DNA of 64,000 nucleotides from Salegentibacter salarius (GTDB taxonomy: Bacteria > Bacteroidota > Bacteroidia > Flavobacteriales > Flavobacteriaceae), in assembly GCF_900168265.1 (NCBI RefSeq), contig NZ_FVZF01000005.1, positions 62,001-126,000 of the forward strand, read 5' to 3'. The notes beneath the pieces are model-generated. The model was not told where the DNA came from, ran no database searches, and was given only the letters and a program-made list of their open reading frames with translations. Made by a program: the position numbers and the translations under genes. Shown here piece after piece: positions 18,836-33,539 of this stretch (within the stretch, counting starts at the first letter, position 1; every line of letters starts with the position of its first letter).

Positions 18836-20323
18836 CTAAGCCGTTTGAGTTTTTGCAGATTCACTTAATTCCTTGATTTTAATGCCGAAAGCAGCAAAAA
18901 GTAAGGTCATAAACGGACTCAAATAATTAAAGAAGGCATAACCCGCGTAACTTAGGGTTGGAACACCTAGAACACCGCTATGATATGCGCCACAGGTATT
19001 CCATGGAATTAGCACCGAAGTTACCGTTCCCGAATCTTCTAAGGCTCTACTTAGGTTTTCTGGAGCAAGGCCTTTATCACGGTAAGCCTTTGCGAACATT
19101 TTTCCCGGAACTACAATTGCTAAATATTGATCTGAAGCAGTTGCGTTTAAAGCTAAGCAGCTAAAAACTGTACTGGCGAATAAACCAAAGGTGGTATGGA
19201 ATAAATTTAGCAAAGCTTTACTAATTCTAGCAAGGGCACCAATCGCTTCCATAATTCCTCCAAAAACCATTGCACAAATAATTAGCCAGATAGTTCCAAG
19301 CATTCCCGCCATTCCTCCAGAAGAAAATAGATCATTTAAGTTTTTATTATCGGTTTCTATCGCGGTATCTACGGTAATAGCCTGCATAACTCCACGGTAA
19401 CCGCTAATAAAGTTAAGATCTGTAGTTCCTGCAATTTGCGCTACAATGCCCGGTTGAAAGAATAGGGCAGCGACTGCACCCAAAAGTGTTCCTAGCAATA
19501 AAGCGATTAAAGGCGAGGTTTTTTTAACGATTAGTGCAATTACAATTGCCGGAACAAGAAAAAGCCACGGGCTAATTGTAAAAGATTTCTCTATAGAGGT
19601 CAGGATCGCAGAAGTATCTGTAGTTCCCGAAGTTTCTAAATTAAAGCCGATGATGACGAAAATAATAAGTGTAATAGTAATAGTAGGAACCGTAGTTAGG
19701 GTCATATAGCGAATATGCGTAAACAAATCTGTTCCCGCCATTGCCGGAGCAAGGTTGGTAGTATCACTTAAAGGTGATAATTTATCACCAAAATAAGCTC
19801 CGGAAAGAATTGCACCCGCAGTCATCCCTACCGATATTCCCAAAGCTTCAGCTATTCCTATTAATGCAATACCTACGGTTGCTGAAGTAGTCCAGCTACT
19901 TCCGGTGGCCACTGAGATCACGGCGCAAATAATCACACAGGCCGCTAAAAATATTGTAGGGTTTAATATTTGTAGTCCATAATAGATCATGGTAGGAATA
20001 ATCCCTGAAATAAGCCAGGTTCCTGCCAAAGCTCCCACCATTAGAAGAATAAGAATAGCACCGGCTGTACTTTGAATATTTCCGGCAACTTCATCTATCA
20101 TTTTATCATATTCTACATTATTGAAATAACCAACAATGGCAGCGACAGCGCCACCCAATAATAAAACAAACTGATTGGAACCACTTAGTGCATCATCTCC
20201 AAACACAAATACATTAAAAGCAAGCATTGCAATAAGCGCAAAAACGGGAATTAATGCCGGCCAAATACCGAGTTCTTTATTAGTAGGAATTTGTTCAGTT
20301 TGAGACGGGTCTTGGTTTTCCAT
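18836..20323 (-). CDS. nhaC: Na+/H+ antiporter, NhaC family
   Basis: The 495-residue protein has about 11-12 hydrophobic segments. The signatures GSSWTTSATVGIALIGIAEALG, GAILSGAYFGDKLSPLSDTTNLAP and the later LNATASDQYLAIVVPGKMF belong to the NhaC family. It exchanges sodium for protons at the inner membrane and supports growth in salt, which fits a marine or halophilic organism. The gene is monocistronic as far as can be seen: 185 bp precede the peroxiredoxin region downstream and 134 bp separate it from the barrel gene at 20458. The repeated internal pseudo-symmetry of such carriers is visible. Confidence 0.93.
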   Translation of the reverse strand: MENQDPSQTEQIPTNKELGIWPALIPVFALIAMLAFNVFVFGDDALSGSNQFVLLLGGAVAAIVGYFNNVEYDKMIDEVAGNIQSTAGAILILLMVGALAGTWLISGIIPTMIYYGLQILNPTIFLAACVIICAVISVATGSSWTTSATVGIALIGIAEALGISVGMTAGAILSGAYFGDKLSPLSDTTNLAPAMAGTDLFTHIRYMTLTTVPTITITLIIFVIIGFNLETSGTTDTSAILTSIEKSFTISPWLFLVPAIVIALIVKKTSPLIALLLGTLLGAVAALFFQPGIVAQIAGTTDLNFISGYRGVMQAITVDTAIETDNKNLNDLFSSGGMAGMLGTIWLIICAMVFGGIMEAIGALARISKALLNLFHTTFGLFASTVFSCLALNATASDQYLAIVVPGKMFAKAYRDKGLAPENLSRALEDSGTVTSVLIPWNTCGAYHSGVLGVPTLSYAGYAFFNYLSPFMTLLFAAFGIKIKELSESAKTQTA

Positions 20324-21142: not shown

Positions 21143-22345
21143 TTAATTGAAAACTCCTACTTCCTGCATACAGGATTTCATCATTTTATAAGTGCGTTCT
21201 ATATCGTTATCCAAACCAATAGAAAATCGAATTAAACCGTTACTTAAGCCCATTTTTTCCTGTTCTTCTATGGGGATTTCCGAAGAAGTAGAACTACCGG
21301 GTGCACTAAAAAGTGTTTTGTAAAAACCTAAACTTACCGCCAGGTAACCCAAATTTTTCTCCTGCATAAGTTCCATCAATTCATTGGCTTTTTCCAGGCT
21401 ACCAACATCTATGGTCAATAAACCTCCAAACCCATAATCTTGATTCATCATTCTTTTAAAGGTTTCATGGCCCGGATGATCTTTTAAACCCGGATAAACT
21501 GTTCTTAAGCCATCTTGCTGAAATTTCTCAGCCAGGAACATGGCATTTTTGCTATGTTGTTTAATCCTAATGTGTAGTGTTCTTAAGTTCTTTAAAACCG
21601 AAGCCGCTCGCATACTATCCATCGTGGGACCTAATAGCATATTTGCACCATCGTTCACACTGCGCAGGGCGTTGATAAACTCCTGGCTGCCGCAGGTCAC
21701 ACCGCCAACAGTATCGCTGCTACCGTTAATGAATTTGGTTAAACTATGAATTACCACATCGGCACCCAATTCTTTCGGACTAATGGAAAGTGGAGAAAAG
21801 GTATTATCTACTACAAAAGTAAGCTGATGTTTTTTCGCGATCTTAGCCAATGCTTCAATATCGGCAACTTCCAGCAAGGGATTGCTTACAGATTCGCAGT
21901 ATAGAACTTTGGTGTCTTTGGTGATCGCTGCTTCAACCTGTTCAAGATTGGTGATATCTACAAAGGAAGTTTGAATATTAAACTTCGGGATAAAATTCTT
22001 CATAAAAGCATAGGTCCCACCGTAAACGGTTCGGCTGGAAACAATATGATCGCCGGCCTGGCATAATTGGAGCAGGGTAGAAGTGATAGCGCCCATCCCA
22101 CTTGCCGCAACATTTGCGGTTTCGGTACCTTCCATTGCTGCAAGCGCCTCGCCTAAATATAAATTTGAAGGAGAAGAATGCCTGGAATAAAGGTAGCAAC
22201 CTTCTGCATTTCCTTCAAAGGTATCGAACATTGTTTTTGCCGAAAGAAACGTATAGGTAGAGGAATCGGAGATTGAAGGATTTACACCTCCATATTCTCC
22301 AAAATATTGAAGATCCTGAATATTATCTGCAGGTTTATATTTCAT
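21143..22345 (-). CDS. Cys/Met-metabolism PLP enzyme, methionine gamma-lyase type
   Basis: The 400-residue protein is a gamma-family PLP enzyme: Tyr-Ser-Arg at 53-55, substrate region TVYGGTYAFM (107-115) and the Schiff-base Lys 204 in VVIHSLTKFINGSSDTVGGV. It is closest in pattern to the methionine gamma-lyase and cystathionine lyase/synthase group. Classic methionine gamma-lyases have Cys in the YGCT motif; this protein has Gly 110, so substrate is uncertain (methionine, cystathionine or O-acylhomoserine). It is divergent from an Lrp/AsnC regulator, an arrangement like mdeA/mdeR in pseudomonads. Cytoplasmic tetramers are expected. Confidence 0.85.
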   Translation of the reverse strand: MKYKPADNIQDLQYFGEYGGVNPSISDSSTYTFLSAKTMFDTFEGNAEGCYLYSRHSSPSNLYLGEALAAMEGTETANVAASGMGAITSTLLQLCQAGDHIVSSRTVYGGTYAFMKNFIPKFNIQTSFVDITNLEQVEAAITKDTKVLYCESVSNPLLEVADIEALAKIAKKHQLTFVVDNTFSPLSISPKELGADVVIHSLTKFINGSSDTVGGVTCGSQEFINALRSVNDGANMLLGPTMDSMRAASVLKNLRTLHIRIKQHSKNAMFLAEKFQQDGLRTVYPGLKDHPGHETFKRMMNQDYGFGGLLTIDVGSLEKANELMELMQEKNLGYLAVSLGFYKTLFSAPGSSTSSEIPIEEQEKMGLSNGLIRFSIGLDNDIERTYKMMKSCMQEVGVFN

Positions 22346-22502: not shown

Positions 22503-22961
22503 ATGAAATTAGACCAAAAAGATCTTCAGATCTTAAAACACTTGCAACAGGATAGTAAAATGACCAATAAGGAAATTTCCAACAAGCTGGAACTTTCTGT
22601 AACTGCAGTTTTTGAACGTATTAAACGCCTGGAAAGGGAAGGGGTTATTGCAAATTACGTGGCTCTTATTTCTCCCGAAAAGGTGGAAAAGAATTTTATG
22701 GTTTTTTGCCAGATAAAACTTATTCAGCATTCCAGATCTTATTTAACGAAGTTTGAAGCCGAGGTCGCAAAGCTTTCCGAAGTTTTGGAATGTTACCATG
22801 TTAGTGGTGAGTATGATTATATTCTAAAAGTTCTGGTAAAGGATATGGAAGCCTATCGAGAATTTATGGTAACTAAACTCACCAACCTTGACCATATAGG
22901 GAGTACCCAAAGTACTTTTATAATCTCACCGGTAAAAAGCACAACTGCTGTCCCGCTATAA
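22503..22961 (+). CDS. Lrp/AsnC-family transcription regulator
   Basis: The 152-residue protein has an N-terminal winged helix-turn-helix (about 1-60: LDQKDLQILKHLQQDSKMTN, then LSVTAVFERIKRLEREGVI) and a C-terminal RAM/AsnC ligand domain (about 68-152: ECYHVSGEYDYILKVLVKDM, the Gly-Asp/Glu-Tyr-Asp signature). Such proteins form octamers that respond to amino acids. It is divergent from the methionine gamma-lyase-type gene and so probably controls it in response to methionine or a related amino acid. It is also upstream of the amine cluster (415 bp away), which could be a second target. Confidence 0.9.
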   Translation: MKLDQKDLQILKHLQQDSKMTNKEISNKLELSVTAVFERIKRLEREGVIANYVALISPEKVEKNFMVFCQIKLIQHSRSYLTKFEAEVAKLSEVLECYHVSGEYDYILKVLVKDMEAYREFMVTKLTNLDHIGSTQSTFIISPVKSTTAVPL

Positions 22962-23376: not shown

Positions 23377-24684
23377 ATGACTGAAGAGCAAACAAAATCT
23401 CAGCAGCTCCATGACAGGAGAAAAAATATTGTAGCCAACGGAGTTGGTGTTTTCAATACGGCCACGGTAAGCAAGGCCAAAGGAGCAATAATTACAGATG
23501 TAGACGGAAAAGAACATATAGACTTCGCCGGTGGTATAGGCGTTGTGAATGCGGGTCATTGCCCACCGCCTGTGGTAAAAGCTATACAGGAGCAGGCTGA
23601 AAAATATCTGCACACCAGTTTTAATGTAGTTACTTACGAGCCTTATATAAAACTCTGTGAAGAGCTTGCAGAAATACTTCCGCACGGCGATCATACTAAA
23701 GCGATGCTTATTAGTACCGGTGCTGAGGCTGTAGAGAACGCTATTAAAATTGCACGCCAGGCCACAAAAAGACCCGCAGTAATTTGTTTTACCGAAGCTT
23801 ATCACGGGCGCACCCTAATGGGAATGAGTCTTACCAGTAAAGTGAATTATAAATTCTTTTCTGGTCCTTTTGCTCCTGAAGTTTACCGAATCCCTTTTCC
23901 TAATTTTTACAAATATCATGGCACGCAGAATATGGATGAGTTTGTGGAAACGGAGCTCAACCGACTTAAAGACAGTGCCCATAGTATGGTAGATATTGAT
24001 AGCGTGGCTGCAATAATTGTAGAGCCAATTCAGGGGGAAGGAGGTTTTAATCCAATTCCTCAAAAATATATGGAAGGCCTTCGCTCATTTTGTGACCAGC
24101 ATGGCGTTATGCTAATTTTTGATGAAATTCAAAGTGGTTTCTGCCGTACGGGGCATTGGGCAAGCTGGCAACATTATGGCGTGCAACCCGATATAAGCAC
24201 CTATGCAAAATCTATGGGCTCGGGGCTTCCAATTGCCGCTGTACTTGGTAGAGGCGAAATTATGGATGCTGCTTTACCCGGAACTATTGGCGGCACCTAC
24301 ATTGGCAGTCCTGTTTGTTGTGCTGCAGCTTTAGCTACTATACAATATATGAAGGATGAAAACCTTAACGAGCGGGCGGTTTATATAGGTAAGATTATTA
24401 CAGAGCGGTTGGAGAAATTCCGAAAAGAATGTCCTGAAATTGGAGATGTAAGAGGATTGGGTGCAATGATAGGGATTGAATTTATAAAAGATAATGATCC
24501 CGGGAAACCGCATACCGATTTATGCGCCAGTATTGTAAAAGGTTGCGCCGAAGAAGGCTTAATTCTTATAAGTGCCGGTACTTTTAAAAATGTTTTAAGG
24601 ATATTATGTCCCCTGGTTATTACCGAAGAGCAGTTAAACAAGGCGCTGGATATTCTGGAAAACCAAATTCGAAAACATACTTAA
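23377..24684 (+). CDS. Class III PLP aminotransferase, GABA/omega-amine type
   Basis: The 435-residue protein has the class III fold: GGIGVVNAGHCPPPVVKAIQ, then STGAEAVENAIKIAR (112-126), AYHGRTLMGMSLTSK, Asp 249 in IFDEIQSGFCRTG and PLP Lys 278 in STYAKSMGSGLP. It is closest in pattern to 4-aminobutyrate aminotransferases and would take the amino group off an omega-amine (GABA, putrescine-derived or beta-alanine like). It is the first gene of a co-directional cluster with an amidohydrolase, decarboxylase, ATP-grasp ligase, C45 hydrolase and aldehyde dehydrogenase, which argues for an amine-degradation role. The true substrate is not fixed by sequence. Confidence 0.9.
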   Translation: MTEEQTKSQQLHDRRKNIVANGVGVFNTATVSKAKGAIITDVDGKEHIDFAGGIGVVNAGHCPPPVVKAIQEQAEKYLHTSFNVVTYEPYIKLCEELAEILPHGDHTKAMLISTGAEAVENAIKIARQATKRPAVICFTEAYHGRTLMGMSLTSKVNYKFFSGPFAPEVYRIPFPNFYKYHGTQNMDEFVETELNRLKDSAHSMVDIDSVAAIIVEPIQGEGGFNPIPQKYMEGLRSFCDQHGVMLIFDEIQSGFCRTGHWASWQHYGVQPDISTYAKSMGSGLPIAAVLGRGEIMDAALPGTIGGTYIGSPVCCAAALATIQYMKDENLNERAVYIGKIITERLEKFRKECPEIGDVRGLGAMIGIEFIKDNDPGKPHTDLCASIVKGCAEEGLILISAGTFKNVLRILCPLVITEEQLNKALDILENQIRKHT

Positions 24685-24737
24685 GTTTTAAAATACCACT
24701 TGAAGTTCTATCAAAAGTAATTTTCAGGAGGATAAAG

Positions 24738-24755
24738 TGCGTAAAATTTTACGCA
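24738..24755. promoter_or_regulatory. Perfect 18-bp palindrome, candidate operator
   Basis: TGCGTAAAATTTTACGCA is identical to its own reverse complement. It lies 54 bp after the aminotransferase stop and 100 bp before the amidohydrolase start, followed by a 10-bp palindrome ATCAGCTGAT (24765-24774). There is no T run, so a terminator is unlikely. Confidence 0.45.
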
Positions 24756-24855
24756 TTAAAAAATATCAGCTGATCAGTTTTTTTGAAAACTTGGAAGAGA
24801 TCGATCAGGAAATCCGGTGGAAATATTTTCTACGGAAAACAAGAAATAAAAATAT

Positions 24856-25788
24856 ATGAATCCATTTGCAATAGCAGGAATACAAATGAAGGTTTCCGCA
24901 GTCGCTTCTAATGTAGAAATGATGAAGCTGAAACTTGATATAACTATGAGTCTTTATCCCTGGGTAGATATGGTAGTGTTTAGCGAGTTATGTGGCTACG
25001 GCCCATTAACCCACAATGCTCAGGAGATTCCGGGAGAATTTGAGAAGGAAATGCAGGCAATGGCCAAAAAGCACGGAATTTGGTTATTGCCGGGTTCTAT
25101 TTTTGAAAAAAGCGAAGGTAAGATCTATAATACCGCCACCGTGATTAATCCTGAAGGTGAGGTTGTTACGCGGTATAGAAAAGTTTTTCCTTTTTATCCT
25201 TATGAAGTAGGAGTAACTCCGGGTGCGGGATTCTGTGTATTTGATGTTCCCGGAGTAGCAAAATTCGGATTATCTATATGTTATGACATGTGGTTTCCTG
25301 AAACCGTGCGAACCCTGGCCGTGATGGGAGCAGAAGTTATTTTGCACCCAACCATGACGGGTACTATAGACCGCGATATAGAATTATCTATTGTAAGGGC
25401 TATGGCGGCTGTAAATCAGTGTTATTTCTTCGATGTAAACGGATTGGAATCCGGTGGAAATGGTAGGTCACTGGTTTGCGGTCCCGATGGTCGCGTGATT
25501 TACCAGGCAGAAGGTAATGAGGAGATCTTTCCGCTGGAACTTAATATCAATCGGGTGCGCCGAAGTCGGGAACTTGGGGTATTGCGCTTAGGGCAACCTT
25601 TAAAAAGTTTTAGAGATCATATAGGTGATTTTCATATTTATCAAAAGGGAGCTGAGCTGCCATATCTTAATTCTTTAGGACCACTTATTAAACCTACAAG
25701 ATTAGACAGCCTGGCAAAATTAAAAATGAAAGAACATGAATACGAACCACCGGAAAACCCTACAGGATATAAAGGATTTGGAGGATAA
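24856..25788 (+). CDS. Carbon-nitrogen hydrolase (nitrilase superfamily)
   Basis: The 310-residue protein has the full catalytic triad: Glu 44 (VFSELCGYG), Lys 109 (RYRKVFPFYP) and Cys 142 (LSICYDMWFPE), plus the second conserved Glu region (AEVILHPTM). These enzymes hydrolyse C-N bonds in amides, carbamoyl compounds or nitriles. The closest general type is amidase or N-carbamoylputrescine/ureido hydrolase. Within this cluster it could release an N-acyl or carbamoyl group from an amine. Length and C-terminal tail (to PPENPTGYKGFGG) are normal. It lies 171 bp after the aminotransferase gene and 14 bp before the VOC gene. Confidence 0.9.
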   Translation: MNPFAIAGIQMKVSAVASNVEMMKLKLDITMSLYPWVDMVVFSELCGYGPLTHNAQEIPGEFEKEMQAMAKKHGIWLLPGSIFEKSEGKIYNTATVINPEGEVVTRYRKVFPFYPYEVGVTPGAGFCVFDVPGVAKFGLSICYDMWFPETVRTLAVMGAEVILHPTMTGTIDRDIELSIVRAMAAVNQCYFFDVNGLESGGNGRSLVCGPDGRVIYQAEGNEEIFPLELNINRVRRSRELGVLRLGQPLKSFRDHIGDFHIYQKGAELPYLNSLGPLIKPTRLDSLAKLKMKEHEYEPPENPTGYKGFGG

Positions 25789-25802
25789 TTAAAAACAGCA
25801 CA

Positions 25803-26210
25803 ATGGGAGGAACAACGAGAAGAAAACAAAAAGAGGATACACCTGTAAAAGATTTTATAAGCTGGTTTGAAATTCCCGCAATCAATTTTCAACAGGCGGT
25901 AGACTTCTATAATCGCATCTTTAAGATGGATATGGAAACCCAATTTGACGGGAATTATGCCATGGCATTTTTTCCGGCCGAAAAAGGTATTGGGGGAGCT
26001 ATTGTTACCGGTCCAAATTCTATTCCCGGTGTAATTGGTCCTTTGCTTTATCTCAATGCCGGTAAAGACCTTAATCGTATTCTTAAAAGAGTTGAACCAG
26101 CAGGAGGCAGGGTTGTAATGACCAAAACCTTAATAAATCCGGAGTCTGGACATTTTGCCATTTTTATTGATTCTGAAGGAAACAAACTAGCCCTACATTC
26201 AAAAGATTAA
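25803..26210 (+). CDS. VOC-family protein (glyoxalase/bleomycin-resistance fold)
   Basis: The 135-residue protein has one VOC beta-alpha-beta-beta-beta pair per half: ISWFEIPAINFQQAVDFYNR at the start and GHFAIFIDSEGNKLALHSK at the end. His and Glu positions normally bind a metal ion; a candidate ligand set (Glu 31-region and His 116-region) is not certain. This subgroup (DUF1428-like/CFP32-like in databases) has no settled reaction. It is tightly packed between the nitrilase-type gene (14 bp) and the decarboxylase gene (2 bp), so it is almost surely translated in the same operon and could act on an intermediate. Confidence 0.8.
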   Translation: MGGTTRRKQKEDTPVKDFISWFEIPAINFQQAVDFYNRIFKMDMETQFDGNYAMAFFPAEKGIGGAIVTGPNSIPGVIGPLLYLNAGKDLNRILKRVEPAGGRVVMTKTLINPESGHFAIFIDSEGNKLALHSKD

Positions 26211-26212
26211 TT

Positions 26213-28960
26213 ATGCCAGAGAATAAAATAGACAGTTCACATTACTATAATATCGCTCAATTTAGAGTAGAATCCTGGAATGACTTAAAAAATGAGTCGA
26301 CCAAACTTTATTCTTCCCCTCGCGGTTCAGAAGACGAAAAATTATATAAAAAGAATCTTCGGAAATTATTAAAAGATATTGAAGGAGTAGAGTGTTATTT
26401 TGCTTTTCCGGGTTTGTCTTGTTTAGAGTCGCTGCGGGCAATGTTAGACAGGCATGAGCATACCGCGCTTTCCAATAAAATTGCTGAGATTACCAAGAAC
26501 CTGGTAAGTGACAGGTATAGAAGTAATCCAGATTTCCTTGAAGATGATGATCCAACCGTTGAAATAAGCGATAAAGGGGATCGCGCTGAAGTTTCCAGGA
26601 AAACTTATTTTGAAGTGATGTTCGTAGAAGATGTTTCTCATGCAGAAGATAGTAAACTAAGGCATGATCTAAAAGAACTTAGGCTTTCTAACGAGCAATT
26701 TGCGTATGGGATTGTGGTGCAACGTTCGTTTGAAGATGCTTTGATCGCGCTTCAGTTTAATTACAATATACAGGCGGTAGTAATTCGATATGCACCTCCG
26801 TACCATTCCAAAAAGATCACTCCGGTGATCAAACCTTTTATTCAGAATATTCTAAAATTAGATTTCGCTTCCAGGACTCCAAAGGAATTAGGACCAATTT
26901 TGGGTATGATAATTAAGAAATTCAGGCCAGAACTGGATACCTATTATGTAACTGATACCGCTTTAGGGAATTTAAAAGACAGTACTTTAAAAACTTTCAG
27001 AAGAATATTCTATCGGGCTGAAGATTTGCAAGAACTTCACCTAACTATTATAAGAGGAATAAGTGAGCGTTTTGAAACTCCTTTTTTCTCGGCTTTAAAA
27101 GATTACAGTAAGAAACCTACCGGGATTTTTCACGCAATGCCAATTTCCCGAGGTAACTCGGTTTTTAAATCCAGATGGATCAACGATTTCGGGAATTTTT
27201 ACGGGCGGAATATGTTTTTGGCCGAAACATCTTCCACCACCGGCGGATTGGACTCTCTGTTGCAACCAACCGGTTCACTAAAAAAAGCGCAGCAAAAAGC
27301 CAGTGAAGCCTATGGTTCCAGAAACACATATTTTGTAACCAATGGTACTTCTACGGCTAATAAAATTGTAGTGCAAGCCCTGGTAAAACCAGGCGATGTG
27401 ATCTTAATTGATAGAGATTGCCATAAATCTCATCACTACGGACTCGTTTTGGCAGGAGCTTACCCGGTTTACCTGGATTCTTATCCTATAGAAGAATATT
27501 CTATGTATGGAGCAGTTCCGTTGGAGCAGATCAAAGAAAAATTATTGCAATTAAAAAAGGCAGGAAGGTTAAACCTCGTGAAAATGCTTTTACTTACCAA
27601 CTGTACTTTTGACGGCCTGGTTTATAATGTAGAAAGGGTAATGCAGGAAATACTGGCTATTAAACCAGATATGATTTTCTTATGGGATGAAGCCTGGTTT
27701 GCTTTTGCCGGTTTCACTTATAATTATAAGCAGCGTACAGGAATGTTTGTGGCCCAGAAATTATGTGATAAATACCAAAGCAATAGTTACCGCGAAGAAT
27801 ACAAGGCCCATATTAAAAGCCTGAAAAAGAATGAAATTCCCAGATTACCAGATCCTGATAAGGTGAAAATTAGGGTGTATTCTACTCAAAGTACGCATAA
27901 AACACTCAGTAGTTTCCGGCAGGGCTCCATGATACATATCTGGGATGAGGAATTTCGAAAAAAGAGCGAGAATACCTTTATGGAGGCTTATATGACGCAT
28001 ACTTCCACTTCCCCTAATTACCAAATGTTGGCTTCGCTGGATGTTGGTAGAAGACAGGTGCAATTTGAAGGTTATGAGTTGGTGGAAAAAAGTATAGAAT
28101 TGGCGATGGTGCTAAGAGCCAAGATCAACGATCATCCCAAGCTTAAGAAATATTTTGATGTATTAACCATCAGTAATTTTATCCCTCAACAACATCGAAA
28201 ATCAGGTATTAAGGAATATTATAATTCTAACGATGGTTGGAACAGGATGGAAGCCGCCTGGGAGCAGGATGAATTTGTGTTAGATCCTACCAAAATTACT
28301 TTACACATTGGTAGAACAGGGGTAGATGGAGATACTTTCAAAAATAAATATTTGATGGATAAGTTTAATATTCAAATTAATAAAACCTCCAGGAATACGG
28401 TTTTATTTATGACGAATATAGGAACCACCAGGGGAAGTGTAACTTATTTGACCAATGCCTTGTTAAAGATAGCCGATGAGTTAGATGAGGAATTTAAAAC
28501 GCTTAGTGAGAAAGAGGGCAGGAACCGTAAAGACCGTATAAAATCCTTAACCGAAGATTTTCCTCCATTACCCGATTTTAGTTATTTCCACCATTCTTTT
28601 CAGGCCGTTCCGGGTGTGCCGGGAGGAAATATAAGAGAAGCTTTTTTTCTCGCTTATAATGAAGAGAATTATGAATATATGCCACTAACAGATTGTTTGC
28701 CGGCGATGGAAGAGAATAGGATACTTGTGGCCTCTTCTTTTATAATCCCTTATCCGCCGGGATTCCCCGTGCTTGTACCGGGGCAGGTGGTGAGCAAGGA
28801 AATAATAAGATTTCTTACTGCTTTAGACGTATCTGAAATTCACGGCTACCGGGCAGATCTTGGTCTTAGAGTTTTCAGGGATAATGTGCTTAACCGGCAG
28901 AAAACAGTGAGTTCAATGGGCTCTATGGGAAATAATTCTAAGAAAAAATTACTAACCTAA
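26213..28960 (+). CDS. Orn/Lys/Arg decarboxylase-family PLP enzyme, extra long (915 aa)
   Basis: The C-terminal two thirds match the fold-type I amino-acid decarboxylase: CHKSHHYGLVLAGAYPVYLD, LTNCTFDGLVYNVERV, FLWDEAWFAF, and PLP Lys 563 in STQSTHKTLSSFRQGSM. The end (IPYPPGFPVLVPGQVVS) is the family C-terminal signature. The first 250 residues contain a wing-type domain plus a further charged, unfamiliar segment. Biodegradative enzymes are about 710-755 residues, so this one is roughly 160 longer. Substrate (ornithine, lysine, arginine or another) cannot be read from sequence. It lies 2 bp after the VOC gene and 11 bp before the ATP-grasp gene. Confidence 0.88.
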   Translation: MPENKIDSSHYYNIAQFRVESWNDLKNESTKLYSSPRGSEDEKLYKKNLRKLLKDIEGVECYFAFPGLSCLESLRAMLDRHEHTALSNKIAEITKNLVSDRYRSNPDFLEDDDPTVEISDKGDRAEVSRKTYFEVMFVEDVSHAEDSKLRHDLKELRLSNEQFAYGIVVQRSFEDALIALQFNYNIQAVVIRYAPPYHSKKITPVIKPFIQNILKLDFASRTPKELGPILGMIIKKFRPELDTYYVTDTALGNLKDSTLKTFRRIFYRAEDLQELHLTIIRGISERFETPFFSALKDYSKKPTGIFHAMPISRGNSVFKSRWINDFGNFYGRNMFLAETSSTTGGLDSLLQPTGSLKKAQQKASEAYGSRNTYFVTNGTSTANKIVVQALVKPGDVILIDRDCHKSHHYGLVLAGAYPVYLDSYPIEEYSMYGAVPLEQIKEKLLQLKKAGRLNLVKMLLLTNCTFDGLVYNVERVMQEILAIKPDMIFLWDEAWFAFAGFTYNYKQRTGMFVAQKLCDKYQSNSYREEYKAHIKSLKKNEIPRLPDPDKVKIRVYSTQSTHKTLSSFRQGSMIHIWDEEFRKKSENTFMEAYMTHTSTSPNYQMLASLDVGRRQVQFEGYELVEKSIELAMVLRAKINDHPKLKKYFDVLTISNFIPQQHRKSGIKEYYNSNDGWNRMEAAWEQDEFVLDPTKITLHIGRTGVDGDTFKNKYLMDKFNIQINKTSRNTVLFMTNIGTTRGSVTYLTNALLKIADELDEEFKTLSEKEGRNRKDRIKSLTEDFPPLPDFSYFHHSFQAVPGVPGGNIREAFFLAYNEENYEYMPLTDCLPAMEENRILVASSFIIPYPPGFPVLVPGQVVSKEIIRFLTALDVSEIHGYRADLGLRVFRDNVLNRQKTVSSMGSMGNNSKKKLLT

Positions 28961-28971
28961 AAAACTAAATT

Positions 28972-30678
28972 ATGGAATCTAAGAAACCAAAAGCGTCCAA
29001 TAAAAAGGGAGCTGCTAATAAAAAGAAATCAGCAATTAAAACAGGAACTGACAGAACTAAAATTCCAATTACAGGAAAAGCTCATAAAGCTAAAGAACAG
29101 GGTGGTTCCGCAGAAAAGTCAAAGAAGTCAACCTCAAAATCGCCTGTAAAGAAAAGTCCGGCCAAACGGAAAACCTCGTTAGCTTCCAAAAAACCATTGG
29201 TCCAAAAGAAACCTCAAAATACTTCAGTATCTGAATTAAGTGGAGTTTCCGATATCCGAAGGTCTTTTCATAAAAATGAAGAACCCCTTTACTTTATAAG
29301 TGCGACCAATTTTAATCTTCTGGGAGCCGATGAATGGATAAAAGGTTTTAAGTTCATTACCTATATCGAATGTTTTGATGGTTTACATCCAAATGTATTT
29401 TCTCCAAAAAATGAGATCCCACACGATGATTTTGAAGGTATTGAAGATATTAATAATTATCTATTACAACATCCCGAAGTTCAGGACTATCTTAAAACAA
29501 GATCTGTAGACGGGAGAGCCGGGAAAGCAATGTTTTTGATGTTCAATGAGAAAACTGAAGTGCTTGCAGAGAAACTCGGCTTGGAAATTATGTTTCCCAC
29601 CGCTGAAATGCGAACTTTCCTGGATAATAAAGTAAACACCAATCGTATTGCAGAAAAAGCAGGGGTAGCCTGCGTGCCATACGTTTTGACCAAAATTGAT
29701 AGCTACGAGCATTTAAGAGAAGTTTCTAAACATCTTAGCAACGATTTAGTTATACAAACTCCGTTTGGCGATTCCGGCCATACCACCTTCTTTATCTCTA
29801 ACGAAGAGCAATATGATAAACACGCAGAAGAGATCGAGAAAGAAGAGGAAGTTAAGGTAATGAAACGTATTCGTTGTAGGGGTTCTGCTATAGAAGCTTG
29901 TGTTACCCGTCACGGAACAATTGTAGCACCGCTAATGACAGAATTGGTAGGATTTAAGGAACTTACACCTTATGAAGGTGGATGGTGTGGTAACGAAATT
30001 TACCCTAATGCATTTACTCCCGAGCTAAGAGAGAAAGCAATAGAATACACCCAATTATTTGGAAACCAGTTGCGGGAAGAAGGTTACAAAGGCTATTTTG
30101 AATTAGACTTTTTAATAGATCAGGATAATGGGGAGATCTATTTAGGCGAATTGAATCCAAGAGTTACGGGCGCAAGTTCTATAACCAACCACGCCGTGTT
30201 TGCCCTGGCAGATGCACCTCTATTTGTTTTCCATATTTTAGAATGGATGGATATAGATTATGAACTTGATATTGATGCTATAAATGATCGCTGGGCACGC
30301 CAGGAAAATATAGATGGCTGGAGCCAGTTAATTGTGAAGCATACCGAAGATACCATAGAATACGTTACAAAGGCACCAAGTTCAGGAATCTATAGAATGT
30401 ATGATACCGGGCATATTCAGTTTGATAGAATGGATACGCACCGTAGAGCAGTAGAGAATGAAAATGAAGCTTTTTTCTTACGAATAAGCAGAAAAGGTGA
30501 TTATCTATACGAAGGAGCCGATATGGGAATATTGGTAAGTCGTGGTCGTATGATGACCGATGATTTTAGACTTAATAACAGGGCAAAACATTGGATTAAG
30601 GCCATTAGGGGGCAGTATGCTTCAGAAGTGGTAGAGGATAAAAAGAAACCAAAACTATCAGGAACTTTAACTAAATAA
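28972..30678 (+). CDS. ATP-grasp ligase (biotin-carboxylase-like) with Lys/Ser/Pro-rich N-terminal tail
   Basis: The 568-residue protein begins with an 85-residue disordered tail rich in Lys, Ser, Ala and Pro with SPVKK and SPAKR units, like the tail of histone H1. The rest is an ATP-grasp domain: pre-ATP-grasp region with ATNFNLLGADEW, then MFPTAEMRTFLDNKVNTN, and the Mg/ATP end motif GYFELDFLID...IYLGELNPRVTGASS, in which Glu and Asn bind metal. Such enzymes ligate a carboxylate to an amine through acyl phosphate. No biotin carboxyl-carrier gene is near, so a peptide-type ligase role is more likely than carboxylation. It is in the amine cluster, 11 bp after the decarboxylase gene. Confidence 0.85.
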   Translation: MESKKPKASNKKGAANKKKSAIKTGTDRTKIPITGKAHKAKEQGGSAEKSKKSTSKSPVKKSPAKRKTSLASKKPLVQKKPQNTSVSELSGVSDIRRSFHKNEEPLYFISATNFNLLGADEWIKGFKFITYIECFDGLHPNVFSPKNEIPHDDFEGIEDINNYLLQHPEVQDYLKTRSVDGRAGKAMFLMFNEKTEVLAEKLGLEIMFPTAEMRTFLDNKVNTNRIAEKAGVACVPYVLTKIDSYEHLREVSKHLSNDLVIQTPFGDSGHTTFFISNEEQYDKHAEEIEKEEEVKVMKRIRCRGSAIEACVTRHGTIVAPLMTELVGFKELTPYEGGWCGNEIYPNAFTPELREKAIEYTQLFGNQLREEGYKGYFELDFLIDQDNGEIYLGELNPRVTGASSITNHAVFALADAPLFVFHILEWMDIDYELDIDAINDRWARQENIDGWSQLIVKHTEDTIEYVTKAPSSGIYRMYDTGHIQFDRMDTHRRAVENENEAFFLRISRKGDYLYEGADMGILVSRGRMMTDDFRLNNRAKHWIKAIRGQYASEVVEDKKKPKLSGTLTK

Positions 30679-30764
30679 TATGCTGGATTTTAGAAAGTTC
30701 AAAGCAAATTAAAACTATTTTGCGAAACCTTTCTAAGAGAGGCGATTATTTAAAATTTAAATTT

Positions 30765-32015
30765 ATGCAATTACATTTCAATGCTATTTCCGAACCCGGC
30801 AAACCGGGAACCAAATGGCAAAGATTATATAAAACTCACTGGCCGGCTTATAAGAACTGGCTTAATTCTAAAGGGACGGTTAATTATCCAGACCTAAAGA
30901 CTTCGCAGGCAGCACTTAAAAAATATATGCCGGAGATGTGGCCTACTTATCAGCGTTTGTGCAAATTAGCAAAAGGTGATAAGGTAGCGGCACGTTTTTT
31001 AACGGGTTTTCAGCCGCCGGCTTATATAAGTGGCTGTTCACAGGCGGTTACCACCGGGAAGGATATCCAGCTAGTTAGAAATTACGATTTTCATCCAGAT
31101 CTCATGGAGGGCACACAATTGCTCACCTGCTGGAATAAGAAGAAAGTAATCGCCACCAGCGATTGCCTTATTGGAGCTGTAGATGGTATGAACGATGGTG
31201 GCCTGGCTGTTTCTCTAACTTTTGGAGGAAGAAAAGAAGTAGGAGTAGGCTTCGGTATTCCTTTTATTCTGCGTTATGTGTTGGAATTTTGCAGTAATGT
31301 TGATGAAGCTGTCGCGGCTTTAACTAGGATTCCCTCGCATATGTCTTATAACGTCACCGTTGTAGATAAAACAGGTAAATTCAAAACCGTTCAACTGGCG
31401 CCAGATAAAACTCCTGTAATTACTGATGCCTCTTTTACTACTAATCACCAGGGAATTATAGACTGGCCGGAAAATGCTGCTTTTAATAAAACGCTGGAAA
31501 GGTCTTCTTTTCTGAAAAAGATGCTTTCAGTTAAAAATGTGAATTCAAATCAGGTAGCTGATGCCTTTCTAAAGGCACCACTTTACAATACCAAGTTTAA
31601 GGAAGGTTTTGGAACTCTATTTACCTCTGTATATCGCCCATTAGAAGATAAAGTTATACTTCGCTGGCCGGGAACTTCGGTAGTGCAGACTTTCGATGAT
31701 TTCCAGGAAGTATATAGACTTATAAATTATAAACAGGCTAAAGTTGCACCAGAATTGTGGAAACAAGAAGTTGTGGAAACCATTAAAACGGTAGAAGATC
31801 CTTTCGAAGAGCAAACTGTGCAAAATGTGGAATGGCAGGAGACTCTAACTGAAATTATGGTAAATGCCATGGCCCAGGCTCATCCGTCGACAAATGAACA
31901 GGAACTTGAAAAATTAAGAGGTGAAATAATTGATAATGGAGAAGTATCCTGGCAGGCAGTAGCCGGCTTTTGGAGTAAAATGGGTTCGGGATATGCTGAT
32001 AGTTGGACAAGTTAA
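30765..32015 (+). CDS. C45-family Ntn-hydrolase (acyltransferase/amidohydrolase)
   Basis: The ATG at 30765 gives 416 residues; a TTG at 30720 would add 15 and is less likely. The protein has the C45 self-processing site Gly-Cys in ISGCSQAV (Cys 91 from this start), then VRNYDFHPDL, GMNDGGLAVSLTFGG and ASFTTNHQG, as in isopenicillin N acyltransferase-like and beta-alanyl-amine hydrolase-like proteins. Autocleavage would leave Cys as the N-terminal nucleophile. No signal peptide is seen, so it should act in the cytoplasm on N-acyl amines. The ATP-grasp gene lies just upstream and an aldehyde dehydrogenase downstream, so a ligation-hydrolysis pair is plausible. Confidence 0.83.
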   Translation: MQLHFNAISEPGKPGTKWQRLYKTHWPAYKNWLNSKGTVNYPDLKTSQAALKKYMPEMWPTYQRLCKLAKGDKVAARFLTGFQPPAYISGCSQAVTTGKDIQLVRNYDFHPDLMEGTQLLTCWNKKKVIATSDCLIGAVDGMNDGGLAVSLTFGGRKEVGVGFGIPFILRYVLEFCSNVDEAVAALTRIPSHMSYNVTVVDKTGKFKTVQLAPDKTPVITDASFTTNHQGIIDWPENAAFNKTLERSSFLKKMLSVKNVNSNQVADAFLKAPLYNTKFKEGFGTLFTSVYRPLEDKVILRWPGTSVVQTFDDFQEVYRLINYKQAKVAPELWKQEVVETIKTVEDPFEEQTVQNVEWQETLTEIMVNAMAQAHPSTNEQELEKLRGEIIDNGEVSWQAVAGFWSKMGSGYADSWTS

Positions 32016-32069
32016 ACGGCAGTAATTTTTTTCTAAAAGCCGTAAAAAAAGGAAAAAATTATCCAATTA

Positions 32070-32130
32070 TCATCCTGAACTTGTTTCAGAGGCTGCTCCG
32101 AAATTTATTCGGAGATCTAACTTGTTGGAG
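32070..32130 (+). repeat. Nested palindromic repeat, second family, copy 1
   Basis: Block TCATCCTGAACTTGTTTCAG (32070-32089) is followed by a hairpin CTCCGAA/TTCGGAG (32096-32114) and GATCTAAC. It matches a block at 37922-37950 with a few changes and lies in the 165-bp gap between the C45 gene and the aldehyde dehydrogenase gene. Confidence 0.6.
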
Positions 32131-32180
32131 TTCCTCAGGCCTTTTTGCCAATTTTCAACAACTATTTAAAATAAAACACA

Positions 32181-33539
32181 ATGGAATTTTATAGCGTAAA
32201 CCCTTACAGTGGGAAGCAAGTTGGAAAATATACGGCACAAACCAGGGAAGAAACAATAAAGGCTCTGGATCAATCTGGAGAAGCTTTTAAAGACTGGAGT
32301 AAACAGCCGCTTTCTTACAGAACCGAACTTTTACAAAAAGCTGGGCAGGTATTAAGAGATAAGCTGGAGGAATATGCCAAAATGATCACCCAGGAAATGG
32401 GAAAACCAATTTCTGAATCTAGGGCTGAGGTTAACAAGTGCGCCTGGGTTTGTGATTATTATGCTGAAAATGCTTCAGATTTTCTTCAGCAGGAAGAAAT
32501 AAAAACTGATGCAACTCATAGTTATGTAAGGCACGACCCTATAGGAAGTGTTTTCGCCATTATGCCCTGGAATTTCCCATTCTGGCAGGTTTTTAGGTTT
32601 GCTGCTCCTACACTTACCGCCGGCAACACCGGTATTTTAAAACATGCGCCTAATGTTTTTGGCTGTGCTTTAATGATCGAAGACGTTTTTAAAAAAGCAG
32701 GTTATCCGTACGGAGTTTTTCAGAATTTAATTGTGCATCACGATCAAACTGAAATGATCATTGCGCACGATGCCGTTCAGGCGGTTACCCTAACCGGAAG
32801 TGAAGCTGCGGGAGCTGCAGTAGCACAGCTTGCGGGCAAATATATTAAAAAAAGTTTGCTGGAATTGGGAGGCAATAATTCTTTTATTGTCTGGGAAGAT
32901 GCAGATATTGATCAGGCTGTGAAAACTGCTCTAACCGCCAGGATGCTAAATTGCGGACAGAGCTGTATCGCAGCGAAGCGCTTTATTCTGCTGGAAGGAA
33001 TTTACGATGAGTTTGTTTCTAAATTCAAGGCTGCAGTAAGCGAATTAAAATCTGGCGACACTATGGATGATACTACGCAGGTTGGTCCGCTTGCCAGAAA
33101 AGATCTTGCAGATCAACTTCAAAGTCAGGTTAAAAGGTCTGTTGAAAAAGGAGCCGAATTACTACTTGGAGGGGAGCAGAACCAATGTTTCCATCAGCCA
33201 ACTATTTTAGGAAATGTAAAACCGGGAATGCCCGCTTTTGATGAAGAGACCTTTGGCCCGCTTGCAGCAATGATAAAGGCAAAAAATATTGAAGAGGCTT
33301 TTGAACTTTCAGAGAAATCAAAATTTGGATTGGGAACTACGGTTTTCACAAAAAATATTGAAAAAGCTATGCAGATGGCTGATAAGGTTAGTGACGGCGC
33401 CTATTTCGTTAATGAACTGGTAAAATCAGATCCCAGGCTTCCGTTTGGTGGAACTAAGCGATCTGGCTATGGACGCGAGCTAGCAAAAGATGGAATGATG
33501 GAGTTTGTTAATAAGAAAACAGTTTATGTTAAAGCCTAA
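32181..33539 (+). CDS. Aldehyde dehydrogenase, succinate-semialdehyde dehydrogenase type
   Basis: The 452-residue protein has catalytic Cys 262 in LNCGQSCIAAKR, general-base Glu 228 in LLELGGNNSF and the PWNFPFWQVFR motif (about 128). The pattern is the GabD/Sad-type NAD(P)-dependent succinate-semialdehyde dehydrogenase, though 4-amino- or acylamino-butyraldehyde substrates are possible. It would oxidise the aldehyde made by the aminotransferase of the cluster. A nested palindromic repeat lies in its leader (32070-32130), which might separate it from the C45 gene; no T-tailed terminator was seen. It is the last gene before lpdA. Confidence 0.9.
   Translation: MEFYSVNPYSGKQVGKYTAQTREETIKALDQSGEAFKDWSKQPLSYRTELLQKAGQVLRDKLEEYAKMITQEMGKPISESRAEVNKCAWVCDYYAENASDFLQQEEIKTDATHSYVRHDPIGSVFAIMPWNFPFWQVFRFAAPTLTAGNTGILKHAPNVFGCALMIEDVFKKAGYPYGVFQNLIVHHDQTEMIIAHDAVQAVTLTGSEAAGAAVAQLAGKYIKKSLLELGGNNSFIVWEDADIDQAVKTALTARMLNCGQSCIAAKRFILLEGIYDEFVSKFKAAVSELKSGDTMDDTTQVGPLARKDLADQLQSQVKRSVEKGAELLLGGEQNQCFHQPTILGNVKPGMPAFDEETFGPLAAMIKAKNIEEAFELSEKSKFGLGTTVFTKNIEKAMQMADKVSDGAYFVNELVKSDPRLPFGGTKRSGYGRELAKDGMMEFVNKKTVYVKA

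What the first reader, a model, noticed from the sequence alone, without database searches (positions are those of the whole stretch)
23377..33539. Candidate undescribed acyl-protected amine degradation cluster
Seen: seven co-directional genes encode a class III aminotransferase, nitrilase-fold amidohydrolase, VOC protein, Orn/Lys/Arg decarboxylase, ATP-grasp ligase, C45 Ntn-hydrolase and SSADH-type aldehyde dehydrogenase, with tight gaps (2-14 bp) at the VOC and ATP-grasp junctions. Known: the E. coli Puu pathway ligates glutamate to putrescine (PuuA), oxidises the free end (PuuB, PuuC) and hydrolyses the amide (PuuD), then GABA is transaminated and oxidised. Inference: here an ATP-grasp enzyme could replace PuuA and a C45 or nitrilase enzyme PuuD, with the amine made in place by the decarboxylase. 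No glutamine-synthetase-like or PuuB-like gene is present.
Basis: partly seen in the sequence, partly recalled or inferred. Interest (0 to 1): 0.82.

Follow-up and report, generated by a model that had tools for sequence, protein, structure and literature searches.

The report
Conserved ATP-grasp amine-degradation gene cluster
A set of enzyme genes that travels together across several bacterial phyla looks like an undescribed route that turns a basic amino acid into succinate by briefly capping an amine with an ATP-using ligase, but what is capped, and with what, is not yet known.

Summary
The seven genes are real and partly tightly packed, and their core is one evolutionary unit. Among 61 homologous loci with enough flank, aminotransferase, nitrilase-fold enzyme, decarboxylase and ATP-grasp match in 60, 60, 61 and 61. 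Decarboxylase and ATP-grasp occur in the same 11 of 60 relatives. VOC and C45 are optional (49 and 46 of 61). Pseudomonadota and Gemmatimonadota carry versions. The aminotransferase is closest to GabT/PuuE and the dehydrogenase to Sad among solved structures, so GABA to succinate is the likely end. The decarboxylase is of the Rv2531c type, activity unknown. The ATP-grasp is named 'biotin carboxylase' but lacks that enzyme's catalytic Glu. All 73 loci examined match a nitrilase-fold or C45 hydrolase, two as fragments. A Puu-like amine-capping route explains this best (about 0.4). The capping acid, the amine and the amine-oxidising step are not shown. Four loci without the decarboxylase match a keto-arginine decarboxylase instead, pointing to Arg/Orn. 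Seven paper searches on the cluster found no description.

The parts
23377..24684 (+). Class-III aminotransferase (AT3), GabT/PuuE-like; inferred GABA (and perhaps capped-diamine) transaminase
   Evidence: PF00202 411.7 bits; best solved-structure matches 1sf2 GabT and 6wj8 PuuE, 381-384 bits; below the NCBIfam GABA-T cut-offs, but the homologue in L147 passes TIGR00700, 507.2 over 506.65
24856..25788 (+). Nitrilase-fold C-N hydrolase (NIT), own subfamily; inferred amide hydrolase
   Evidence: PF00795 112.5 bits; all NCBIfam cut-offs missed, AguB 84.4 of 410; E44 and C142 invariant in 18 rows, K109 in 17 of 18
25803..26210 (+). VOC-fold protein, optional, role unknown
   Evidence: PF00903 24.9 bits; in 49 of 61 loci
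26213..28960 (+). OKR-family PLP decarboxylase of the Rv2531c type, 915 aa
   Evidence: 791.7 bits to 9n0n over residues 16-899; S560-K563 and D492 invariant in 20 homologues
28972..30678 (+). ATP-grasp enzyme (NCBIfam NF005096, 'biotin carboxylase'); inferred carboxylate-amine ligase
   Evidence: 830.8 bits over cut-off 684; ATP-grasp fold in the model; BC catalytic Glu replaced
30765..32015 (+). C45 Ntn-hydrolase; inferred accessory or alternative amide hydrolase, optional
   Evidence: NF040521 168.5 over cut-off 85; C91 invariant in 31 rows; model closest to isopenicillin-N acyltransferase 2x1c, Z 29.9, rmsd 3.3, 304 aligned
32181..33539 (+). Aldehyde dehydrogenase, Sad/SSADH-like; inferred succinate-semialdehyde dehydrogenase
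   Evidence: Best solved-structure matches Sad 8qms and SSADH 4it9, 424-425 bits; below NCBIfam cut-offs; replaced in L090 by an enzyme that passes TIGR01780 SSADH, 719.5 over 646.35
22503..22961 (+). Lrp/AsnC-type regulator upstream; possible regulator of the cluster (inference)
   Evidence: PF01037 84.0 bits; beside the cluster in 9 of 80 loci

Best explanation
A catabolic operon that decarboxylates a basic amino acid (most likely ornithine, possibly arginine or lysine) with the Rv2531c-type OKR enzyme, caps the resulting amine with a carboxylic acid using the ATP-grasp enzyme, oxidises the free end of the capped amine by transamination (AT3) and dehydrogenation (ALDH), removes the cap with NIT and/or C45, and finishes through GABA, succinate semialdehyde and succinate with the same AT3 and ALDH. 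It works like the E. coli Puu pathway but with unrelated enzymes for capping and uncapping. Shown here: gene content, co-inheritance, family membership, catalytic residues kept, and AT3/ALDH resemblance to GabT/PuuE and Sad. Inferred: every substrate, the identity of the cap, the order of steps, and the double duty of AT3 and ALDH.
For: Core block in 60-61 of 61 loci; all-or-none presence in relatives and across 395 phylum genomes (ATP-grasp 7, OKR 8, 7 shared; the eighth OKR sits at a contig edge behind VOC, NIT and AT3). OKR and ATP-grasp adjacent and overlapping in some phyla (ATGA in L144; 44 bp in L102), which suggests consecutive steps. AT3 and ALDH are nearest to GabT/PuuE and Sad. All 73 loci with enough flank match NIT or C45: both 54, NIT only 16, C45 only 3 (in L114 the NIT, and in L104 the C45 are fragments), as expected if the two can stand in for each other. 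The NIT subfamily (51% identity or more) was found in 7 plasmid records, all 7 with the ATP-grasp. Arg/Orn link: the four OKR-less loci match AruI, three of them with an agmatinase-like and an ornithine-racemase-like gene.
Against: No gene for oxidising a capped amine other than AT3/ALDH, which look specialised for GABA and succinate semialdehyde. AruI with NIT but no ATP-grasp in the stretch shown for L137, where NIT has lost the Lys. Rhizobial OKR relatives (42%) stand next to AspT-type antiporters, which do not suggest a diamine. C45 is missing from 15 of 17 genomes tested. The fold match does not separate carboxylases from amide ligases. The pairwise-identity correlations (0.66-0.92) were not corrected for species descent.
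Confidence: 0.4

Rival explanations
1. OKR is not a basic-amino-acid enzyme but makes GABA (or another omega-amino acid) from glutamate; AT3 and ALDH are then a plain GABA shunt, and ATP-grasp, NIT and C45 form and break a GABA- or glutamate-containing amide used for storage, signalling or uptake.
For: AT3 and ALDH resemble GabT/PuuE and Sad; GABA is then reached in one step with no missing oxidation; AspT-type antiporters flank OKR relatives in L109 and one follows it in L108; peptide-type ABC importers follow C45 in L102, L105 and L135; a glutamate-synthase-like gene is near in L102 and L099.
Against: No member of the OKR family is known to me to use glutamate (recalled); the AspT-linked OKRs are only 41-42% identical; AruI-type front ends point to Arg/Orn.
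Confidence: 0.17
2. Arginine route: OKR makes agmatine, AT3 and ALDH turn it into 4-guanidinobutyrate, and the ATP-grasp/NIT/C45 module acts on the guanidino group or on GABA.
For: The same module sits with AruI, an agmatinase-family gene and an arginase/ornithine-racemase-like fusion in L103, with the same gene set in L106 and L115; NIT relative beside AruI in L137; agmatinase-family genes in 16 of 16 genomes.
Against: Agmatinase-family genes occur with or without the cluster; agmatine deiminase in 0 of 16 genomes; no ureohydrolase in the window cluster; the ATP-grasp then has no clear task.
Confidence: 0.17
3. Lysine route: OKR makes cadaverine; 5-aminovalerate and glutarate are the products, as in the DavBATD pathway, with NIT in the place of DavA.
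For: DavA is a nitrilase-fold amidase and DavT/DavD are GabT/GabD-like (recalled); OKR matches lysine decarboxylases with 160-174 bits; GabT- and SSADH-like enzymes often accept C5 substrates (recalled).
Against: No glutarate-using gene in the window cluster; the AruI links favour C4 products.
Confidence: 0.13
4. The ATP-grasp is a carboxylase-type enzyme (carboxyphosphate chemistry) that carboxylates an amine or guanidine, with NIT and C45 hydrolysing the product.
For: Closest folds are biotin carboxylases and PurK; the only Pfam hit is CPSase_L_D2.
Against: The Glu of 'RIQVEH' aligns with Ala and the ATP-site Lys with Gln; no biotin carrier gene in the window cluster; L-amino-acid ligase 3vot and PylC score about as well.
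Confidence: 0.08

Closest known systems
E. coli Puu pathway (PuuA-PuuB-PuuC-PuuD-PuuE, then Sad/GabD)
   Same: Proposed logic (cap, oxidise, uncap, transaminate, oxidise); AT3 and ALDH nearest to GabT/PuuE and Sad
   Different: ATP-grasp instead of a glutamine-synthetase-like PuuA; no PuuB; NIT/C45 instead of PuuD; the decarboxylase is in the cluster; cap unknown
M. tuberculosis Rv2531c (PDB 9n0n, 9n0o, 9n0p)
   Same: OKR aligns over its full length, 791.7 bits
   Different: Rv2531c has no known activity (PMC12910592, passages); its gene neighbourhood was not looked at here
NCBIfam NF005096 (PRK06524 'biotin carboxylase')
   Same: Window ATP-grasp scores 830.8, cut-off 684
   Different: The name implies biotin carboxylation; the BC catalytic Glu is absent and no carrier gene is in the cluster
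C45 / isopenicillin-N acyltransferase family
   Same: NF040521 over cut-off, Cys invariant, fold Z 29.9 to 2x1c
   Different: Substrate unknown; optional in the cluster
Arginine/ornithine racemase-dehydrogenase-AruI route (as in L103, L106, L115)
   Same: Carries the same NIT, ATP-grasp and C45 genes
   Different: Keto-acid decarboxylase (AruI) in place of OKR
DavBATD lysine pathway (recalled)
   Same: Nitrilase-fold amidase, GabT-like and GabD-like enzymes
   Different: No DavB-like monooxygenase in the cluster; has OKR, ATP-grasp and C45

Membership tests
Puu pathway | Glutamine-synthetase-like gamma-glutamyl ligase (PuuA) | tested here: not met
   None of the seven cluster proteins hits that family; genome not searched
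Puu pathway | FAD amine oxidase (PuuB) in the cluster | tested here: not met
   No such family among the seven
Puu pathway | PuuC-type aldehyde dehydrogenase | tested here: not met
   NF007352 PuuC 235.6 bits, cut-off 850; nearest is Sad
Puu pathway | PuuD-type class-I glutamine-amidotransferase-like hydrolase | tested here: not met
   Candidate hydrolases are CN_hydrolase and C45
Puu pathway | PuuE-type GABA transaminase | tested here: inconclusive
   380.9 bits to PuuE 6wj8, but every NCBIfam GABA-T cut-off shown is missed
Puu pathway | Gamma-glutamylated intermediates | not testable with these tools
   Needs enzyme assays
Biotin carboxylase | Catalytic Glu of the EMNTRIQVEH motif | tested here: not met
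   Profile alignment places ELNPRITGASS there, Ala at the Glu position, window residue A401
Biotin carboxylase | Biotin carrier partner in the cluster | tested here: not met
   No such gene among the seven; genome not searched
ATP-grasp superfamily / NF005096 | Score over the curated cut-off and ATP-grasp fold | tested here: met
   830.8 over 684; model aligns to ATP-grasp enzymes, best Z 20.6, rmsd 4.0, 390 aligned
OKR decarboxylase, Rv2531c type | PLP lysine motif and full-length match | tested here: met
   PF01276 265.5 bits; S-T-H-K563 invariant in 20 rows; 791.7 bits to 9n0n
OKR decarboxylase | Activity on Orn, Lys or Arg | not testable with these tools
   Needs assay
C45 Ntn-hydrolase | Family score and nucleophile Cys | tested here: met
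   168.5 over 85; C91 invariant in 31 rows
Nitrilase superfamily | Glu-Lys-Cys triad | tested here: met
   E44, K109, C142; the assignment of these as the triad is from recalled family knowledge
N-carbamoylputrescine amidase (AguB) | TIGR03381 curated cut-off | tested here: not met
   84.4 of 410.25 bits

The most novel reading that the evidence does not exclude
A widespread, glutamine-synthetase-independent amine-capping catabolic pathway: an ATP-grasp enzyme caps the amine made by Rv2531c-type decarboxylases, and a nitrilase-fold or C45 hydrolase uncaps the oxidised product. The front end can be swapped for a keto-acid route from arginine or ornithine. It would give a substrate class to three enzyme families that are now only named by fold.
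Probability: 0.35. Interest if true: 0.75.

Novelty: new variant of a known kind. Interest (0 to 1): 0.56.

Why it matters
If right, a conserved pathway of marine, saline and soil bacteria from several phyla has been hidden behind names such as 'biotin carboxylase', 'C45 family peptidase' and 'amino acid decarboxylase'. It would show that amine protection in catabolism arose with an ATP-grasp enzyme as well as with glutamine-synthetase-like enzymes, would give a first testable substrate class for Rv2531c-type decarboxylases, and would correct automatic annotations. Even if the substrate guess is wrong, the all-or-none co-inheritance makes the function directly testable.

Tried and rejected
Rejected: biotin carboxylase in the strict sense (catalytic Glu absent); AguB for NIT; C45 as an obligatory part; agmatine deiminase route (0 of 16 genomes). 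Not informative: the agmatinase-family search, positive in all 16 genomes with or without the cluster; two paper searches and one set of passages on the substrate specificity of OKR enzymes; the Rv2531c structure paper is not held.

An artefact that I made and dropped: my simple ORF caller mis-called GC-rich loci, so that L147 seemed to hold a fused aminotransferase and L144 seemed to hold family-less genes downstream; tblastn showed ordinary ALDH-AT3-NIT-OKR-ATP-grasp order, plus C45 in L144. The TIGR00700 score of L147 comes from the true AT3 part. The first neighbourhood script hid some matches through its overlap filter; one search replaces its counts.

Limits: I read the contexts of 10 of 32 plasmid records with the ATP-grasp and of 4 more OKR, 3 more C45 and 2 more NIT hits. 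The genome scan kept the best 80 of at least 552 relatives, so the loci lean to close relatives. Many are MAGs. 20 of 93 loci were dropped before the main count because of short flanks. Matches in that count were not all checked for intact frames: L104 (C45) and L114 (NIT) are fragments, and the C45 regions of L083 and G042 hold a stop.
Full report
Observation. The window lies in a genome of 3.33 Mb; the nearest named hit is Salegentibacter holothuriorum, 94% identity in the ATP-grasp protein. Seven + strand ORFs stand at 23377-33539 as described. The ATP-grasp protein belongs to NF005096, named 'biotin carboxylase' (830.8 bits, cut-off 684), and the decarboxylase is of the Rv2531c type (791.7 bits to 9n0n).

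Is it one unit? Together with 13 further loci this made 93; 73 had at least 6.5 kb upstream and 3 kb downstream. In those 73, matches were found for NIT 70, OKR 69, AT3 63, C45 57, ALDH 53 and VOC 49; in the 61 from the named-genome scan AT3 60, NIT 60, OKR 61, VOC 49, C45 46 and ALDH 47. The flanking Lrp, MGL-like, NhaC-like and LPD genes were found in only 8-9 of the 80 loci, so the cluster ends at AT3 and ALDH.

Co-occurrence. In 60 related genomes a strong ATP-grasp match, OKR and C45 are in the same 11. One search also lists two weak ATP-grasp hits (20-25% identity; G036, G050) and one weak C45 hit (G035). In the own genus 9 of 15 genomes have the unit, so it is gained or lost as a block. 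In 395 genomes of the phylum the ATP-grasp is in 7 and OKR in 8; 7 are shared, and the eighth OKR lies at a contig edge behind VOC, NIT and AT3. Pairwise identities of AT3, NIT, OKR and ATP-grasp correlate at 0.75-0.92 over 70 loci; species descent was not corrected for.

Spread. Record titles name Salegentibacter, Gillisia, Psychroflexus, Polaribacter, Maribacter, Algoriphagus, Brumimicrobium, Ignavibacteriae, Calditrichaeota, Balneolaceae and a Gemmatimonadaceae MAG. In the phylum of that last genome 5 of 150 have the ATP-grasp family at E 1e-60 or better, 4 over its cut-off. On plasmids 32 records hold an ATP-grasp match, all Pseudomonadota by their names and all under 60% identity.

Variation. 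(a) C45 is dispensable: of 17 genomes whose cluster lacks it, 15 have no match anywhere at E 1e-10, nor has the genome of L061. (b) All 73 loci match NIT or C45: both 54, NIT only 16, C45 only 3; two of these matches are fragments, NIT in L114 and C45 in L104, a broken copy on a plasmid that also has a fuller OKR-ATP-grasp-C45 copy (L135). (c) The NIT subfamily at 51% identity or more is in 7 plasmid records, all 7 with the ATP-grasp. (d) The four loci without OKR (L103, L106, L112, L115) all match AruI, the 5-guanidino-2-oxopentanoate decarboxylase; in L112 it is only a 91-residue piece about 11 kb away. In L103 the neighbours also include an agmatinase (over its cut-off), a D-amino-acid dehydrogenase and an ornithine-racemase-like/arginase-like fusion; L106 and L115 carry the same set. 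L103's plasmid carries an OKR elsewhere. (e) In L090 the ALDH is a different enzyme that passes the SSADH cut-off. (f) OKR relatives with no ATP-grasp in the stretch shown stand beside AspT-type antiporters in two rhizobia.

Proteins. OKR keeps the PLP motif S-T-H-K563 in 20 aligned homologues; its relative Rv2531c has no known activity (PMC12910592, passages). NIT keeps E44 and C142 in 18 rows and K109 in 17. C45 keeps C91 in 31 rows, and its model is closest to isopenicillin-N acyltransferase (Z 29.9, rmsd 3.3, 304 aligned; mean pLDDT 81.5). The ATP-grasp model (mean pLDDT 77.4) matches biotin carboxylases, PurK, an L-amino-acid ligase and PylC about equally well, so the fold does not decide. 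The biotin carboxylase Glu in RIQVEH aligns with Ala (A401) and the ATP-site Lys with Gln (Q262). AT3 is nearest to GabT and PuuE and ALDH to Sad and SSADH.

Mechanism. OKR and ATP-grasp are neighbours in most contexts and overlap in some (ATGA in L144; 44 bases in L102), which suggests that the ATP-grasp uses the product of OKR. A ligase beside one or two amide hydrolases and a GABA-to-succinate pair fits a cap-oxidise-uncap route like Puu. The weak point is the oxidation of the capped amine: AT3 and ALDH would have to do it as well as the GABA steps. If OKR used glutamate instead, the cluster would be a GABA shunt with an amide side module. If it used arginine, 4-guanidinobutyrate would be the link to the AruI-type loci. 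I put the Puu-like reading at 0.4.

Literature. Ten searches of the library were run; seven bear on the cluster. Four returned no paper; I saw listings only (20 of 36, 20 of 57 and 2 of 2 papers), and no title or abstract start described the cluster. Subscription journals are mostly not held.

Verdict. Its chemistry is untested.

Noticed in passing
L077:11476-12186, and L041, L043, L049, L051 (L059 further downstream): A 236-aa protein without Pfam or NCBIfam match stands between ATP-grasp and ALDH in loci that lack C45.
   Followed up: partly
L104, L135 (Rhizobium leguminosarum OyaliB plasmid p3): Two OKR-ATP-grasp copies about 22 kb apart; L135 lies beside nifHDK and has C45, a peptide-type ABC importer and an amidase; in L104 OKR is split and C45 cut short near an IS30 gene.
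   Followed up: no
L108, L109: OKR relatives (42%) beside aspartate-alanine antiporter genes, in L108 also aspartate 4-decarboxylase and an HdeA-like chaperone, which looks like acid resistance.
   Followed up: no
L114:11783-11887: A 35-residue, 77% identical remnant of the NIT C-terminus in S. meliloti, just before the ATP-grasp gene.
   Followed up: no
L137:2615-9705: NIT relative that lacks the conserved Lys, near AruI, an ALDH piece and a polar amino-acid-type ABC transporter; the record annotates the other strand of that stretch.
   Followed up: partly
window 18836-20323 (-) and 21143-22345 (-): NhaC/ArcD-like antiporter and MGL-like PLP enzyme beside the cluster, found in 8 and 9 of 80 loci, all close relatives.
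   Followed up: no
L093, L094, L095, L053, L065, L068, L071: An amino-acid permease of the APC type is part of or next to the cluster in 7 loci.
   Followed up: partly
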